This document shows, piece after piece, positions 744-33,728 of a DNA stretch of 33,728 nt. Origin of the DNA: Bacteroidales bacterium (GTDB lineage: Bacteria > Bacteroidota > Bacteroidia > Bacteroidales > UBA932); the NCBI GenBank assembly GCA_017544265.1, contig JAFYEM010000061.1:1-33728 (forward strand). The letters are read 5' to 3'. Both the position numbers and the translations under genes were made by a program. Within the stretch, counting starts at the first letter, position 1, and every line of letters begins with the position of its first letter. The notes below the pieces were generated by a model. The model was not told the origin of the DNA. It was given only the letters and a program-made list of their open reading frames with translations, and ran no database searches.

Positions 744-2119
744 AACACATTTTTGTAACACTTTTAGCTGCAGCCTTATCCATTTCGGCTGCCTGGGCAG
801 TGGATTTTAACGCTTTTTACAAGGATCTTCCTTTTCCCGTCCAGGCACCCGCACAGGTGCAGATTCCCGCCAGCAGTGTGTCTATTCTGGATTTCGGCGG
901 CAATGGTGACGGAATAGCCGACAATACAGAAGCGTTCGCCAATGCACTTGCCGCCCTGGAAAAAATGGGCGGAGGCCGGCTGAACGTTCCCCGCGGGATT
1001 TTTCTGACCGGACCTATCGTGCTGAAAGACAGGATGGAACTGCATCTGGAAAGGGGCGCGATGATTCTTTTCACGCCGGACAGGGCTGTCTATATCAACA
1101 AGGGAAGGGCGGTGCCGTGCATCAGTGCCAGCAAGCGGTGTGACATCGCAATTACCGGCGAAGGCGTAATTGACGGCAACGGTGCTTTCTGGCGTCCGGT
1201 GAAGCGCTCGAAAGTCAGTGATGTGGAGTGGAAGGACTATCAGAGGATGGGCGGCACGGTAATAGACAATAAGCTATGGTATCCGTTTGAACTGAAGCAT
1301 ATTCCGGATATTGCAGGCAATCCCAAAGACCAGGAGAAGATGCGCAATCATCTGATTCGTTTCACCGACTGTGAAAGGATTCTGGTTGAAGGAGTTACGC
1401 TCCAGAATTCTCCGAAATTCCATCTGGTTCCGCAGCGATGCAAGGATGTTACCCTTTCGGGAATAACAGTCCGCTGCCCTTGGAATGCGCAGAACGGCGA
1501 CGGGATAGACCTGATGAACACCAGCAGGGTGTTGATCGCCCGCTGCATGGTGGATGTGGGCGATGACGGAATCTGCCTCAAGGCAGGTGCGGGTCAGGAT
1601 GGTTTCGACAGGGGACCGTGCGAAGATATACTGATTGTGGAGAATACGGTTTTCCATGCCCACGGCGGCTTTGTCATCGGTTCGGAATTTTCCGGAGGCG
1701 TCAAAAACACCGTGGTGCGGGGAAATACGTTTTCAGGGACTGATACAGGTCTTCGCTTCAAGAGCGCCCCTGAACGTGGAGGGAAGACGGAAAACCTGAG
1801 TATCAGTGATATAACCATGAACGGAATCCGTGATGAAGCTATTGTTTTCGAGACTTCCTATGCCGACCGTCCGGCCGGTAACGAGAATGCCCAGGCTGCA
1901 AAGACTAAAAACTGGCTGCCGGAGTTCGCCGGCATAGACATACGCAATGTGGTTTGCCGTGACTGCCGGATTGCGGTGCGTGCGTCTGGAAGTGCCTCCG
2001 AGATTCACGATAATACTATTTCGGACAGCGTGTTTTTCTTTTCTGAGAAGGGGCTTGATTCAGCCCCGGGCATGCTCAGGCTCAAAGGTGTCCGGATGGT
2101 GACATATCCTGCCCAGTAG
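740..2119 (+). CDS. GH28 polygalacturonase (secreted)
   Basis: Probably hydrolyses alpha-1,4-galacturonosyl bonds in homogalacturonan or galacturonate-containing oligomers. A signal peptide covers about residues 1-20 (cleavage after AWA), with no lipobox, so the enzyme is probably periplasmic or secreted. The parallel beta-helix carries the GH28 catalytic set: NGDGID with Asp254, VGDDGICLK with Asp275/Asp276, HGGF with His308, and LRFKS with Arg339/Lys341. The second Asn-x-Asp residue is Gly rather than Thr, as in many bacterial exo-type GH28s. Length (459 aa) is normal. After its signal peptide it shares an FYKDLPF-type motif with the next GH28 (FSSLYEDLPF), so the two look like paralogues. 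It overlaps folP by 4 nt and is separated from the second GH28 by a promoter, so it may be controlled apart from the main operon. Endo versus exo action cannot be decided here. Confidence 0.92.
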   Translation: MKHIFVTLLAAALSISAAWAVDFNAFYKDLPFPVQAPAQVQIPASSVSILDFGGNGDGIADNTEAFANALAALEKMGGGRLNVPRGIFLTGPIVLKDRMELHLERGAMILFTPDRAVYINKGRAVPCISASKRCDIAITGEGVIDGNGAFWRPVKRSKVSDVEWKDYQRMGGTVIDNKLWYPFELKHIPDIAGNPKDQEKMRNHLIRFTDCERILVEGVTLQNSPKFHLVPQRCKDVTLSGITVRCPWNAQNGDGIDLMNTSRVLIARCMVDVGDDGICLKAGAGQDGFDRGPCEDILIVENTVFHAHGGFVIGSEFSGGVKNTVVRGNTFSGTDTGLRFKSAPERGGKTENLSISDITMNGIRDEAIVFETSYADRPAGNENAQAAKTKNWLPEFAGIDIRNVVCRDCRIAVRASGSASEIHDNTISDSVFFFSEKGLDSAPGMLRLKGVRMVTYPAQ

Positions 2120-2189
2120 TTGTCCCGGGGAAGGGCATATTCTCCGGCAAAGTCCCCGTTGTCATAAATTCCGAATACAGTTTGTCTCA

Positions 2190-29749: not shown

Positions 29750-29834
29750 GGAGGTGTGGCCGAGTGGTCGATGGCGGCAGTCTTGAAAACTGTTGAACGG
29801 CAACGTTCCGGGGGTTCGAATCCCTCCGCCTCCG
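29750..29834 (+). tRNA. tRNA-Ser (anticodon TGA)
   Basis: An 85-nt class II tRNA. Acceptor GGAGGTG pairs with CGCCTCC, with discriminator G. The D arm holds GCCGAGTGGTCGATGGC. The anticodon stem-loop has TGA at 29784-29786, followed by AA. There is a long variable arm (about TTGAACGGCAACGTTCC), and a T arm with GGGGGTTCGAATCCCTC. The large variable arm and UGA anticodon identify serine. No CCA is encoded, as usual in Bacteroidota. Its 3' end marks the change from core-like to accessory-like DNA. Confidence 0.97.
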
Positions 29835-30048: not shown

Positions 30049-30273
30049 CTACCCGGCAACAATTTTCCCTTCCCTCAGTTCGCGCTGAAGGATAGAATAT
30101 ACATAAGCTGTGCTTTGAGAGAAAAGACCCGTCTCCAAATCTAGGACTTTCGTATATGTGTCGGAATTATAAACAGCGTCCAAAGCTTCATTCATGGACA
30201 TCTTATGCTCTTCCATCAACTTGAGGACAAGGTCCTTGACCAGTTCCTCAATCATAAAGGATTCCTGGCTCAT
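30049..30273 (-). CDS. Small protein of DUF3990 cassette (third gene)
   Basis: Protein of 74 aa: acidic and helical at the start (MIEELVKDLVLKLMEEHKMS), then NSDTYTKVLDLETGLFSQS and AYVYSILQRELREGKI. I recall similar small proteins beside DUF3990 genes, but know no assigned function. The ATG overlaps the DUF3990 stop by 4 nt, so it is translationally coupled. It may be an antitoxin or immunity partner of the DUF3990 protein, which is inference. A direct repeat GTGTCTAC occurs at 30032-30039 and at 30045-30052, the second copy overlapping its stop codon. Confidence 0.75.
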   Translation of the reverse strand: MSQESFMIEELVKDLVLKLMEEHKMSMNEALDAVYNSDTYTKVLDLETGLFSQSTAYVYSILQRELREGKIVAG

Positions 30274-30746
30274 ACTCTCTTAAGATATTTGATGGAACGC
30301 TCTGTGGCAAAGAAATACTGATATGTGATGCCTTGCTTGTATTTTAGCTCTTCCAAGAATGCGTCAATTGTAATAATGCCAGCAAGAAGGCGGCGAATCT
30401 GAAACCCAACATCGTCATTGGCTATGGGACCATGTACGATATCGTAGTTGTGACTTTGTGTACGAGTTCCGTTGGCGCGGTTTGCCAAAATGAAGTCGGC
30501 CCATTCCTTCGAATAGAATTGGAAATCTTTCAGCACAAGGCTATCTTTCTTGGCAGAGGCCTCATCGTATTCAAAAACAGACACAACAGGGTCTCCGCCA
30601 TACAGCCGTACCCTACGGCTCGCCATTCGCTCTGCCTGGTCTTTGCTTGCAGTGAGATAAAATCCAACCCCGAAGTCCTTGCCAACCTCGGATCTGTTTA
30701 AGTCAATTTCATTGACCTCGACATTGGAGCCGTGATACAGTATCAT
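30270..30746 (-). CDS. DUF3990 protein (ADP-ribosyltransferase-like fold, candidate toxin)
   Basis: Protein of 158 aa. The ATG at 30746 (MILYHGSNVEV) is preferred over the longer start at 30773, because LYHGS is the conserved first motif and the ATG overlaps the DUF3791 stop (ATGA). DUF3990 features are LYHGSN, VGKDFGVGFYLTASKDQAERMA, SVFEYD, WADFILANR and YDIVHGPIANDDV. The family belongs to the ADP-ribosyltransferase-like group as I recall. His in LYHGS and Tyr in GFYLT fit the H-Y part of the catalytic triad, and the third acidic residue is not certain. It is flanked by two small genes with 4-nt overlaps, an arrangement typical of toxin-antitoxin modules. Target and toxicity are unknown. 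Confidence 0.82.
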   Translation of the reverse strand: MILYHGSNVEVNEIDLNRSEVGKDFGVGFYLTASKDQAERMASRRVRLYGGDPVVSVFEYDEASAKKDSLVLKDFQFYSKEWADFILANRANGTRTQSHNYDIVHGPIANDDVGFQIRRLLAGIITIDAFLEELKYKQGITYQYFFATERSIKYLKRV

Positions 30747-30955
30747 GCCAACGCCCCTCCATTGTTCCTGCAATATAGTGCGACATCAGCCACTACGTCC
30801 TCAAAAGACAACGTGTGCTCTACATCATAGAATTCCAGAAGGAAATCTATGCCCTTGTAGCGTGCAAGATACCGATAGGCCTGGGGATTGGACAGGCAGA
30901 ACCGCTCAGCGAAATCACTGATAACCGCCACGATATATGATACTTGCCTGTCCAT
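30743..30955 (-). CDS. DUF3791 small protein (candidate antitoxin)
   Basis: Protein of 70 aa starting at the ATG at 30955; a TTG at 30964 is in frame but sits inside the -7 box. The sequence QVSYIVAVISDFAERFCLS, AYRYLARYKGIDFLLEFYD and EHTLSFEDVVADVALYCRNNGG fits the DUF3791 family pattern. It is the first gene of a three-gene cassette and overlaps DUF3990 by 4 nt. DUF3791 and DUF3990 genes are repeatedly adjacent in gut bacteria as far as I recall, supporting a functional pair. Confidence 0.82.
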   Translation of the reverse strand: MDRQVSYIVAVISDFAERFCLSNPQAYRYLARYKGIDFLLEFYDVEHTLSFEDVVADVALYCRNNGGALA

Positions 30956-30961
30956 ACACCG

Positions 30962-30969
30962 CAAAGTTA
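30962..30969 (-). promoter_or_regulatory. -7 box of the DUF3791/DUF3990 cassette
   Basis: TAACTTTG on the - strand matches TAnnTTTG. No good TTTG lies 19-21 nt upstream. The box ends only 6 nt before the ATG at 30955, so transcription would start at or next to the start codon, suggesting a leaderless message. Confidence 0.5.
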
Positions 30970-33158: not shown

Positions 33159-33443
33159 GATGATTCCTGTTCTCCGGCGCTCCACTTCTCCGGTGATATA
33201 CAATACAAAAGTGTGGAGCCGCTTCGCCTCCACTGTATGGGGTTCTGGTAGGACCTTGAGAATGGATTTGACCGATACTCCACACTCTACATATGTAAAG
33301 CAAGCCATACAACTTGATTACAATCAATGCCGAGCGGAGCGCTTCAACCATCGTCCCTCTCAAAAATTTACCAGATTTCATACAAGGACAACGCGAAACA
33401 CTTTCGCTGTATGTATGCCGGGTTACCCGGCAGGACAAAGTTA
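33159..33443 (-). promoter_or_regulatory. Promoter -7 box and structured leader of the unknown operon
   Basis: On the - strand TAACTTTG (33443-33436) fits the -7 box; the -33 region is only T-rich. Directly downstream is a perfect 17-nt palindrome TGCCGGGT-T-ACCCGGCA (33416-33432), positioned like an operator over the transcription start. The about 270-nt leader then holds GCGAAA/TTTCGC (33393-33407), TTGATT/AATCAA (33314-33327), and CTCCAC copies that can pair alternatively (33212-33217 with 33228-33233, or 33210-33218 with 33279-33287). No ORF in this stretch is convincing. Confidence 0.45.
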
Positions 33444-33449
33444 GAAAAT

Positions 33450-33481
33450 TTTGTGGATATTAAAAAAAAACTCTATATTTG
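33450..33481 (+). promoter_or_regulatory. Promoter of the AbiF-like RNA
   Basis: TTTG (33450-33453), a 20-nt spacer and TATATTTG (33474-33481) match the Bacteroidota consensus. The folded RNA begins within about 10 nt of the -7 box, as expected for a transcript whose 5' end is the RNA itself. It lies back to back with the - strand -7 box at 33436-33443. Confidence 0.75.
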
Positions 33482-33486
33482 CAGTA

Positions 33487-33540
33487 ACAGTACTCGCCAC
33501 GCTTCCCGTAGAACAGCGTACCAGGGCGGGTCTTTTGCTT
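33487..33540 (+). ncRNA. AbiF-type structured RNA (candidate antitoxin RNA)
   Basis: Outer stem ACTCGCC (33492-33498) pairs with GGCGGGT (33525-33531) over 7 bp including one G-U. Immediately inside, ACGCT (33499-33503) pairs with AGCGT (33515-33519). The inner loop carries TCCCG (33504-33508), which could reach GGG near 33524-33526 as a pseudoknot competing with the outer stem. A U-rich tail (TCTTTTGCTTT) follows. It has its own promoter and sits about 10 nt before an abiF start codon. This is the place and general shape of the AbiF RNA motif known upstream of Abi_2/AbiF genes, where the RNA is thought to act as antitoxin. The assignment is from memory of the motif; no covariance search was run. 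Confidence 0.65.
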
Positions 33541-33549
33541 TATTAGACC

Positions 33550-33728
33550 ATGTTGAAGTACACGAAAACACCCATGGATCTGCCTGACCAGATCGCTGTG
33601 CTCATCATGCCAGAACCTGGAACCGGGTCTTCTCTATCAAACCCCAGTTACCATCAAAACTTCCCAATGCGTGGATTACAGGAAGCGTAGGTTCACCTTC
33701 AAAACTCTATCCGCAATTGTGTTGCCTC
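33550..33728 (+). pseudogene. abiF: abiF (Abi_2 family HEPN protein), internally deleted and frameshifted, 3' end beyond window
   Basis: The ATG at 33550 opens MLKYTKTPMDLPDQIAVL, the normal N-terminus of Abi_2/AbiF proteins. After about 17-18 residues this frame turns into unrelated sequence and stops near 33690. The frame shifted by one base then reads CAHHARTWNRVFSIKPQL (from 33597), followed by LYPQLCCL at the window end, which is the C-terminal HEPN region of the same family. An intact protein is about 300 residues with this motif near 200, so roughly 170-190 residues are missing. The arginine normally five residues before the first His of HH (R-N-x-C-A-H) is not retained: the joined frame reads P-D-R-C-A-H. 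The N-terminal and C-terminal parts meet within GATCGCTGTGCTC, so short homology may have guided the deletion. The RNA and promoter upstream look intact. Confidence 0.75.

What the first reader, a model, noticed from the sequence alone, without database searches (positions are those of the whole stretch)
33450..33728. AbiF-like RNA with intact promoter beside an abiF gene that has lost its middle
A good promoter drives a short nested stem-loop that ends about 10 nt before an abiF start codon. The coding part jumps from the N-terminal signature (YTKTPMDLPDQIAVL) to the C-terminal HEPN signature (CAHHARTWNR) in a different frame. AbiF (Abi_2) proteins are HEPN toxins paired with an RNA antitoxin and have been proposed as relatives of Cas13. 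Here the toxin is broken and the RNA kept. It could be a recent deletion under toxin pressure, a solitary antitoxin protecting against other abiF elements, or a re-used small RNA.
Basis: partly seen in the sequence, partly recalled or inferred. Interest (0 to 1): 0.75.

Follow-up and report, generated by a model that had tools for sequence, protein, structure and literature searches.

The report
Antitoxin RNA outliving its broken toxin
An uncultured Bacteroidales bacterium keeps a small RNA antidote and its promoter while the toxin gene they belonged to has lost its middle; the same state recurs in related bacteria, and many bacterial viruses carry the antidote RNA with no toxin gene found.

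Summary
Observation confirmed, with a caveat about the contig end. The window is a whole contig (G000:C45) that stops inside the feature. A promoter (33450-33481) precedes an abiF-type antitoxin RNA (hairpin 33493-33530). Rfam does not find it. A covariance model from 13 other abiF leaders, window left out, has it as its only window hit (66 bits, E 1e-15). The abiF toxin gene (Abi_2, HEPN) starts at 33550 and lacks 580 nt, out of frame, relative to the intact orthologue in L184 (aligned parts 95-98% identical): codons 19 to about 211 are gone, catalytic Arg included. It is not unique: in the family 18 of 39 assessable abiF RNAs lack an intact abiF; in species genomes 38 of 87. Stems and promoters of toxin-less bacterial copies are somewhat more decayed, as expected of relics of toxin-first loss. 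The surprise is in viruses: 84 of 86 viral records with the RNA core show no Abi_2 gene (many are fragments), the outer stem still covaries, and 10 of 15 named phage loci read have it beside tRNA genes. I read these as candidate anti-AbiF decoys; that is inference.

The parts
33363..33449 (+). Leader upstream of the promoter, conserved with the orthologous loci L184 (from 33363) and L159 (from 33374); DNA upstream of it is not alignable with the stored DNA of these loci
   Evidence: blastn of the window against L184 and L159
33450..33481 (+). Bacteroidota-type promoter: TTTG 33450-33453, 20-nt spacer, TATATTTG 33474-33481
   Evidence: read from the sequence; a TTTG and a TAnnTTTG element precede most of the homologous RNAs; consensus itself recalled
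33483..33540 (+). abiF-type antitoxin RNA; outer stem 33493-33498/33525-33530, bulged A 33499, inner stem from 33500/to 33518, six-base 3' bulge 33519-33524, U-rich tail
   Evidence: R1 66 bits, E 9.8e-16, window not in the model; covariation in the 13 model sequences
33550..33603 (+). abiF N-terminal remnant, 18 codons from the ATG
   Evidence: same 18 residues as in the intact L184 orthologue
33595..33604 (+). Deletion junction; imperfect 10-base repeats mark both ends in L184; 580 nt absent
33603..33728 (+). abiF C-terminal remnant from about residue 212, out of frame with the start, cut by the contig end
   Evidence: identical to L184 over 126 nt; tblastn to plasmid Abi proteins; 57% to a plasmid AbiF
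33550..33690 (+). 46-codon reading frame left by the deletion (18 AbiF residues, then out of frame)
   Evidence: no Pfam match

Best explanation
A decaying AbiF toxin-antitoxin locus of the RNA-antitoxin (type III-like) kind. The abiF toxin gene was inactivated by a 580-bp out-of-frame deletion between short imperfect direct repeats, while the antitoxin RNA and its promoter stayed intact. Likely course (inferred): cells that lose the RNA, or both parts at once, are exposed to toxin already made; cells that lose only the toxin gene survive because the RNA still neutralises it. So the viable way out of the module is toxin first, leaving an orphan antitoxin gene that then decays slowly and may meanwhile neutralise AbiF that arrives on plasmids or phages. 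Shown here: identity of the RNA, identity of the gene, the deletion in this contig, recurrence of the state in relatives. Inferred: transcription, toxicity, the survival advantage, neutralisation in trans.
For: RNA: R1 hit of 66 bits with the window left out. Gene: L184 carries the orthologue intact, 299 aa, Abi_2 183 bits, 8vz6 E 2.3e-67; gap of 580 nt, frame lost, Arg207 of RNCCAH lost. Orthologue L159 keeps leader, promoter and RNA while similarity stops 13 nt into the gene. Recurrence: 18 of 39 assessable RNAs in the family and 38 of 87 in species genomes lack an intact abiF; eight of the latter keep both gene ends and lose the middle. Toxin-less copies: outer stem complete in 33 of 38 against 49 of 49, strict -7 element 26 of 38 against 43 of 49 (p 0.014 and 0.035). 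RNA antitoxin acting in trans on AbiF is published for RCd22 (PMC12373285: abstract, section 7, section 13 part 1, passages).
Against: The junction lies about 125 nt from a contig end and no reads were available. Retention of the RNA is expected anyway from its small size next to a 900-nt gene. Of four further broken abi_2 loci with upstream DNA, R1 found only one weak hit (18.4 bits, E 0.024), so the RNA is not always seen to be kept. Without the doubtful L151 the promoter difference is p 0.057. The post-segregational step was not tested.
Confidence: 0.72

Rival explanations
1. Maintained solitary antitoxin: the RNA is kept by selection as a guard against AbiF toxins on incoming plasmids and phages, and the loss of the cell's own toxin was harmless or useful.
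For: RNA structure and promoter intact in the window. Syntenic toxin-less RNAs with similar sequence in two species of one genus, G047:C54 and G110:C55. Intact abiF genes on Bacteroides plasmids. Antitoxin RNA can act in trans (PMC12373285, passages).
Against: The deletion looks recent, so an intact RNA says little. Toxin-less bacterial copies show more broken stems and -7 elements than toxin-bearing ones. Some are visibly decayed (L088, L080).
Confidence: 0.13
2. Artefact: a chimeric read, fragment or strain mixture at the end of the contig, and the organism has an intact abiF.
For: The contig ends about 125 nt past the junction. Intact alleles with 126 of 126 identical bases on the right side exist in another assembly. 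Short repeats at junctions are also where amplification chimeras form (recalled).
Against: Other contig ends overlap by 105, 119 or 141 nt (86 readable ends), so the assembly graph used long words and should not join across a 10-base imperfect repeat. No other abiF piece in the genome: PF07751 0 matches, a full AbiF query finds only the window (E<=10). Local divergence from L184 is low on both sides. The same kind of internal deletion occurs in eight other assemblies.
Confidence: 0.12
3. Re-use: the RNA now controls or serves another gene or process, for instance by terminating transcription upstream of a new neighbour.
For: In L159 the same RNA is followed by what reads like a HEPN/nucleotidyltransferase gene pair (read from the DNA, not searched against a library).
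Against: Nothing downstream can be seen in the window because the contig ends inside the abiF piece. Toxin-less loci have varied genes downstream.
Confidence: 0.03

Closest known systems
abiF RNA, Rfam RF03085
   Same: Same nested architecture (6-bp outer stem, bulged base, 3-bp inner stem, six-base 3' bulge) just upstream of abiF; R1 aligns both subtypes, and L019 and L023 (both used to build R1) also match RF03085.
   Different: Loop and inner stem sequence differ (CGCUUCCCGUAGAACAGCG instead of AGCCUCUNNACNAUGCU). RF03085 does not find the window, 8 of 10 relatives' leaders given to it, or 3 of 3 nearest loci.
AbiF/Abi_2 HEPN toxins with RNA antitoxin: PbAbiF (8vz6) and AbiF of Clostridioides difficile with RCd22 (PMC12373285)
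   Same: The intact orthologue L184 aligns end to end with 8vz6 (E 2.3e-67) with the R...H pair aligned; RNA upstream of the gene.
   Different: In the window the toxin is broken. RCd22 has two abiF motifs and a separate terminator (section 7), here there is one motif.
pseudo-ToxI of phage TE (PMC5086642, one passage)
   Same: A phage RNA that imitates an RNA antitoxin and lets the phage escape a type III system; a precedent for reading toxin-less phage abiF RNAs as decoys.
   Different: Different RNA and toxin, and found as escape mutants, whereas phage abiF RNAs are in natural genomes of many phages. Not a precedent for the bacterial window locus.
abiF sRNA of cyanophage S-CREM1 (PMC9964418, passages)
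   Same: A toxin-less phage abiF RNA already in print, between tRNA genes.
   Different: The passages seen report it as probably functional without proposing a decoy role.

Membership tests
abiF RNA (RF03085) | Reaches Rfam's gathering score (37 bits) | tested here: not met
   No match in the window, none at E<=5 in 33300-33728
abiF RNA (RF03085) | Homologous to RNAs upstream of abiF by sequence and structure | tested here: met
   R1 from 13 other abiF leaders: 66 bits, E 9.8e-16; 99% identity over 122 nt with the leader of the intact L184 gene
abiF RNA (RF03085) | Stem supported by compensatory change | tested here: met
   13 sequences: 117 of 117 cells paired, 17 cells changed on both sides, covariation score 0.45, each reached by 0 of 500 shuffles; but number of pairs with a double change (4) reached by 51 of 500 and further pair types (7) by 342 of 500
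AbiF / Abi_2 toxin (PF07751) | Pfam match of the encoded protein | tested here: not met
   Window pieces: 0 families even at E<=10; own genome: 0. The intact orthologue L184 does match, 183 bits
AbiF / Abi_2 toxin (PF07751) | HEPN catalytic R-x4-H in one frame | tested here: not met
   Arg207 lies in the lost stretch; His212 is out of frame
Type III-like toxin-antitoxin system | Intact toxin gene beside an RNA antitoxin | tested here: not met
   Toxin broken; RNA and promoter intact
Type III-like toxin-antitoxin system | RNA neutralises the toxin | not testable with these tools
   Published for RCd22 (PMC12373285)
Phage anti-AbiF decoy RNA (proposed) | RNA present and structure kept without a toxin gene | tested here: met
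   84 of 86 viral records without Abi_2 (many fragments); outer stem 72.6% paired against shuffle maximum 55.7%
Phage anti-AbiF decoy RNA (proposed) | Disarms host AbiF during infection | not testable with these tools
   Needs a plaque assay

The most novel reading that the evidence does not exclude
Solitary abiF RNAs are a selected class of their own. Phages of unrelated hosts (Mycobacterium, Synechococcus, Acinetobacter, Arthrobacter, a marine Paracoccaceae) carry an abiF antitoxin RNA without an abiF gene, often inside tRNA operons, as a decoy that disarms host AbiF; co-transcription with phage tRNAs would fit a HEPN toxin that attacks tRNA. Toxin-less bacterial copies such as the window's would be the cellular counterpart: antitoxins that outlive the toxin and shield the cell from new abiF elements.
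Probability: 0.35. Interest if true: 0.82.

Novelty: new variant of a known kind. Interest (0 to 1): 0.52.

Why it matters
AbiF is the proposed ancestor of Cas13 (PMC12737573, passages). If its antitoxin RNA often outlives the toxin in bacteria and travels alone in phages, then the way cells leave an RNA-antitoxin addiction module can be read from genomes, phages have a widespread, short and testable candidate anti-AbiF element, and the RNA half of the proposed AbiF-to-Cas13 transition has a life of its own, which bears on how an antitoxin RNA could become a guide. The window is one clean, apparently young example, with one orthologous locus that is intact (L184) and another that has lost the whole gene (L159).

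Tried and rejected
Folding alone as evidence for the RNA: rejected (z -1.38). Rfam as the test: negative for this subtype, so an own model was built. Two R1 hits of 28-29 bits (G084:C4, G107:C27) were dropped from the counts: each is a simple terminator-like hairpin just before a gene that reads like hisG (label recalled). Other R1 hits under about 32 bits are less certain one by one (for example G216:C263) and were kept. L151 (Thermoguttaceae), 1 of 6 outer pairs, is probably a chance match; it is kept in the counts and left out where said. A k=127 assembly-graph explanation of the contig end was tested and dropped: end overlaps are 105, 119 and 141; 86 ends were readable, 18 short contigs read as N, and C62-C65 were not fetched. 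The window region against named phages: no match. My AbiF HMM called L264 broken while Pfam finds a full 300-aa Abi_2 there, so it can miss or split divergent AbiF; the bacterial 'none' and 'broken' classes were not re-checked with Pfam, the viral ones were. Some 'broken' genes may be sequencing errors in drafts (single stop or frameshift: L174, L181, L122, L180). tRNA proximity of viral solitary RNAs: 17 of 66 within 100 nt against 3.3 by random placement, but 15 of 60 against 9.0 when dereplicated and compared with non-ORF DNA, so only a modest excess; toxin-bearing bacterial loci 0 of 49. In toxin-less viral RNAs 27 of 56 distinct stems have fewer than 5 of 6 pairs in the fixed register used. 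A common lost core of the internal deletions was not pursued, since long internal deletions share a centre anyway. No structure prediction was run.

Full report
What was checked. The window is a complete contig (G000:C45, 33,728 bases) of a 1.87-Mb, 65-contig draft genome estimated 90.5% complete. The feature lies at the very end of that contig. It belongs to a Bacteroidales family that includes Candidatus Coprenecus; this is inferred from G203:C65, a same-family contig, and DXAW01000079.1 having the same length, 32,146 bases.

The RNA. Rfam finds nothing at 33300-33728 even at E<=5, and folding alone is weak. The leaders of abiF genes in relatives, however, mostly carry the same nested hairpin after a TTTG...TAnnTTTG promoter; some Abi_2 genes (L028, L029, L035, L040) have no such hairpin. 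From 13 leaders, the window left out (two of the 13 stand before broken genes, L003 and L005), I built model R1. All 117 pair cells are standard, 17 are changed on both sides and the covariation score is 0.45, each reached by 0 of 500 shuffles; the number of pairs with a double change (4) was reached by 51 of 500 and the number of further pair types (7) by 342 of 500. R1 hits the window once, at 33483-33540, 66 bits, E 9.8e-16. Of 10 relatives' loci given to Rfam, two, L019 and L023, match RF03085; both are among R1's 13 sequences. I take the window's RNA to be a subtype of the abiF RNA that Rfam's model does not reach.

The gene. The two coding pieces are the start and the C-terminal part of AbiF. 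The best relative is L184, contig JAEEHS010000050.1 of MAG Tb.RUG.128: same leader, promoter and RNA, and an intact 299-aa AbiF. That protein matches Pfam Abi_2 (183 bits) and the solved Abi family protein 8vz6 (E 2.3e-67). Against L184 the window lacks 580 nt. The loss starts after codon 18, ends near residue 211, shifts the frame and removes Arg207 of RNCCAH, which aligns with Arg210 of 8vz6, one of the two residues whose double change inactivates PbAbiF (PMC12373285, discussion). Ten-base imperfect repeats lie at both ends. Near the junction the loci differ at 2 of 131 positions on the left and 0 of 126 on the right, so the event looks recent. No other abiF piece was found in the genome.

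Is the deletion real? No reads could be examined. The contig stops about 125 nt past the junction. Exact end overlaps between other contigs are 105, 119 and 141 nt (86 ends readable, 18 short contigs masked, C62-C65 not fetched). That points to assembly with long words, which should not join two places across a 10-base imperfect repeat. I think a real deletion likelier than an artefact and leave 0.12 for the latter.

How common is this? R1 gave 50 matches in 40 of 299 same-family genomes. Two look like terminators and were dropped. Of the other 48, 21 have an intact abiF downstream, 9 a broken one, 9 none, and 9, the window among them, lie too near a contig end. At least four loci occur in both sets (equal contig lengths: L109, L150, L164, L181). 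Eight of the broken ones (L113, L126, L152, L155, L156, L170, L175, L188) keep both gene ends and lose part of the middle, as the window does; L175 and, in the family set, G151:C12 do so in frame. L159 keeps the window's leader, promoter and RNA while similarity stops 13 nt into the gene. Of four further broken abi_2 loci with upstream DNA to read, R1 found one weak hit (L456, 18.4 bits, E 0.024), so retention is not universal.

Relic or guard? In the species-genome set the outer stem is complete in 49 of 49 toxin-bearing and 33 of 38 toxin-less loci, and a strict -7 element is present in 43 of 49 and 26 of 38 (p 0.014 and 0.035; 0.031 and 0.057 without L151). Toxin-less copies thus decay, slowly. 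The simplest account is toxin-first loss: the RNA must stay while toxin is still around and is dispensable afterwards. That an abiF RNA neutralises AbiF in trans is published for RCd22 (PMC12373285; abstract, sections 7 and 13 part 1, and passages).

Where the trail led. The RNA core also occurs in viral contigs: 6 stretches of the window's type and 91 of the RF03085 type, 80 of which were stored. Two of these 86 records hold an Abi_2 gene (1 of 50; 1 of 36); many records are fragments, and by their lengths some are copies of named phages (Acj61, LittleE, Lolly9). Twelve of 14 phage or viral loci that I picked pass Rfam's abiF threshold (LittleE is there twice). In the toxin-less viral RNAs the outer stem, which was not part of the search pattern, still pairs: 56 distinct stem pairs, 72.6% of cells against a shuffle mean of 49.4% and maximum of 55.7% in 2000, and 39.9-53.9% when slid by one or two bases; 29 of 56 have at least 5 of 6 pairs. 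BLAST of named phages with one probe finds 88 records, 67 of them Mycobacterium phages, with duplicate records and some short matches that may be chance; another probe finds Acinetobacter phage Acj61 and Roseobacter phage CRP-143 among 7 records. Acj61, CRP-143 and LittleE, searched whole, show no Abi_2 gene. Of 15 named phage loci that I picked and read, 10 have an annotated tRNA within 100 nt of the RNA; in S-CREM1, Bromden, Chaser, Douge, Estes and others a tRNA gene starts 3-5 nt after it (several are close relatives). Across viral contigs tRNA proximity is 15 of 60 against 9.0 expected in non-ORF DNA, a modest excess.

What is in print. The S-CREM1 paper reports its abiF sRNA as not previously identified in cyanophages and thinks it probably functional; it also counts three phage genomes among the Rfam members (PMC9964418, passages). 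A phage RNA mimic that defeats a type III system has a precedent in pseudo-ToxI (PMC5086642, one passage). Cas13a cleaving tRNA anticodons and phage tRNAs evading defence are known to me here only from search listings (PMC11042736, PMC11555353). In the held library two papers contain 'abif rna' and two contain both abiF and RF03085; searches with solitary and antitoxin-RNA terms, mycobacteriophage and phage-tRNA or anti-defense terms listed no title or abstract start that proposes phage abiF RNAs as decoys. Most subscription papers are not in that library, and I did not see the paper on the origin of Cas13 from AbiF.

Verdict. The window is an apparently young, clear case of an RNA antitoxin left behind by its toxin. 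By itself it is a variant of a known module. The recurrence of toxin-less abiF RNAs, above all in phages, is the part that deserves bench work.

Noticed in passing
L320, L321, L322, L443-L454; viral loci L223-L308: abiF antitoxin RNAs in phages with no Abi_2 gene found, in 10 of 15 named phage loci read within 100 nt of a tRNA gene.
   Followed up: partly
L034, L037, L042, L051, L053, upstream of abiF: Another leader type (e.g. GTTGCCATCCCATAAGAACTGGCGCGGCTC) that shares a TCCCRTA(A)GA motif but seems to lack the six-base 3' bulge: perhaps a further abiF RNA subtype not modelled by R1.
   Followed up: no
L087 (G047:C241) 1879-1936 and 2073-2128, minus strand: Two abiF RNAs of different subtypes in tandem with only a short abiF N-terminal remnant between them; the same genome has several more toxin-less abiF RNAs.
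   Followed up: no
L090 (G047:C54) and L102 (G110:C55): Similar toxin-less abiF RNAs before the same downstream gene in two species of one genus; a candidate for testing selection on a solitary bacterial copy.
   Followed up: no
L022, L024, L025 (Bacteroides and Phocaeicola plasmid records): C-terminal abiF remnants of about 55% identity to the window's piece; in L022 one lies beside the resistance gene cfxA. Described only.
   Followed up: no
window 30049-30964: A DUF3990 gene (ADP-ribosyltransferase-like weak second match) with a DUF3791 gene, near a tRNA at 29750-29834; possibly another small conflict module.
   Followed up: no
L159, downstream of the orthologous RNA: What reads like a HEPN/nucleotidyltransferase pair follows the toxin-less RNA (not searched against a family library).
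   Followed up: no
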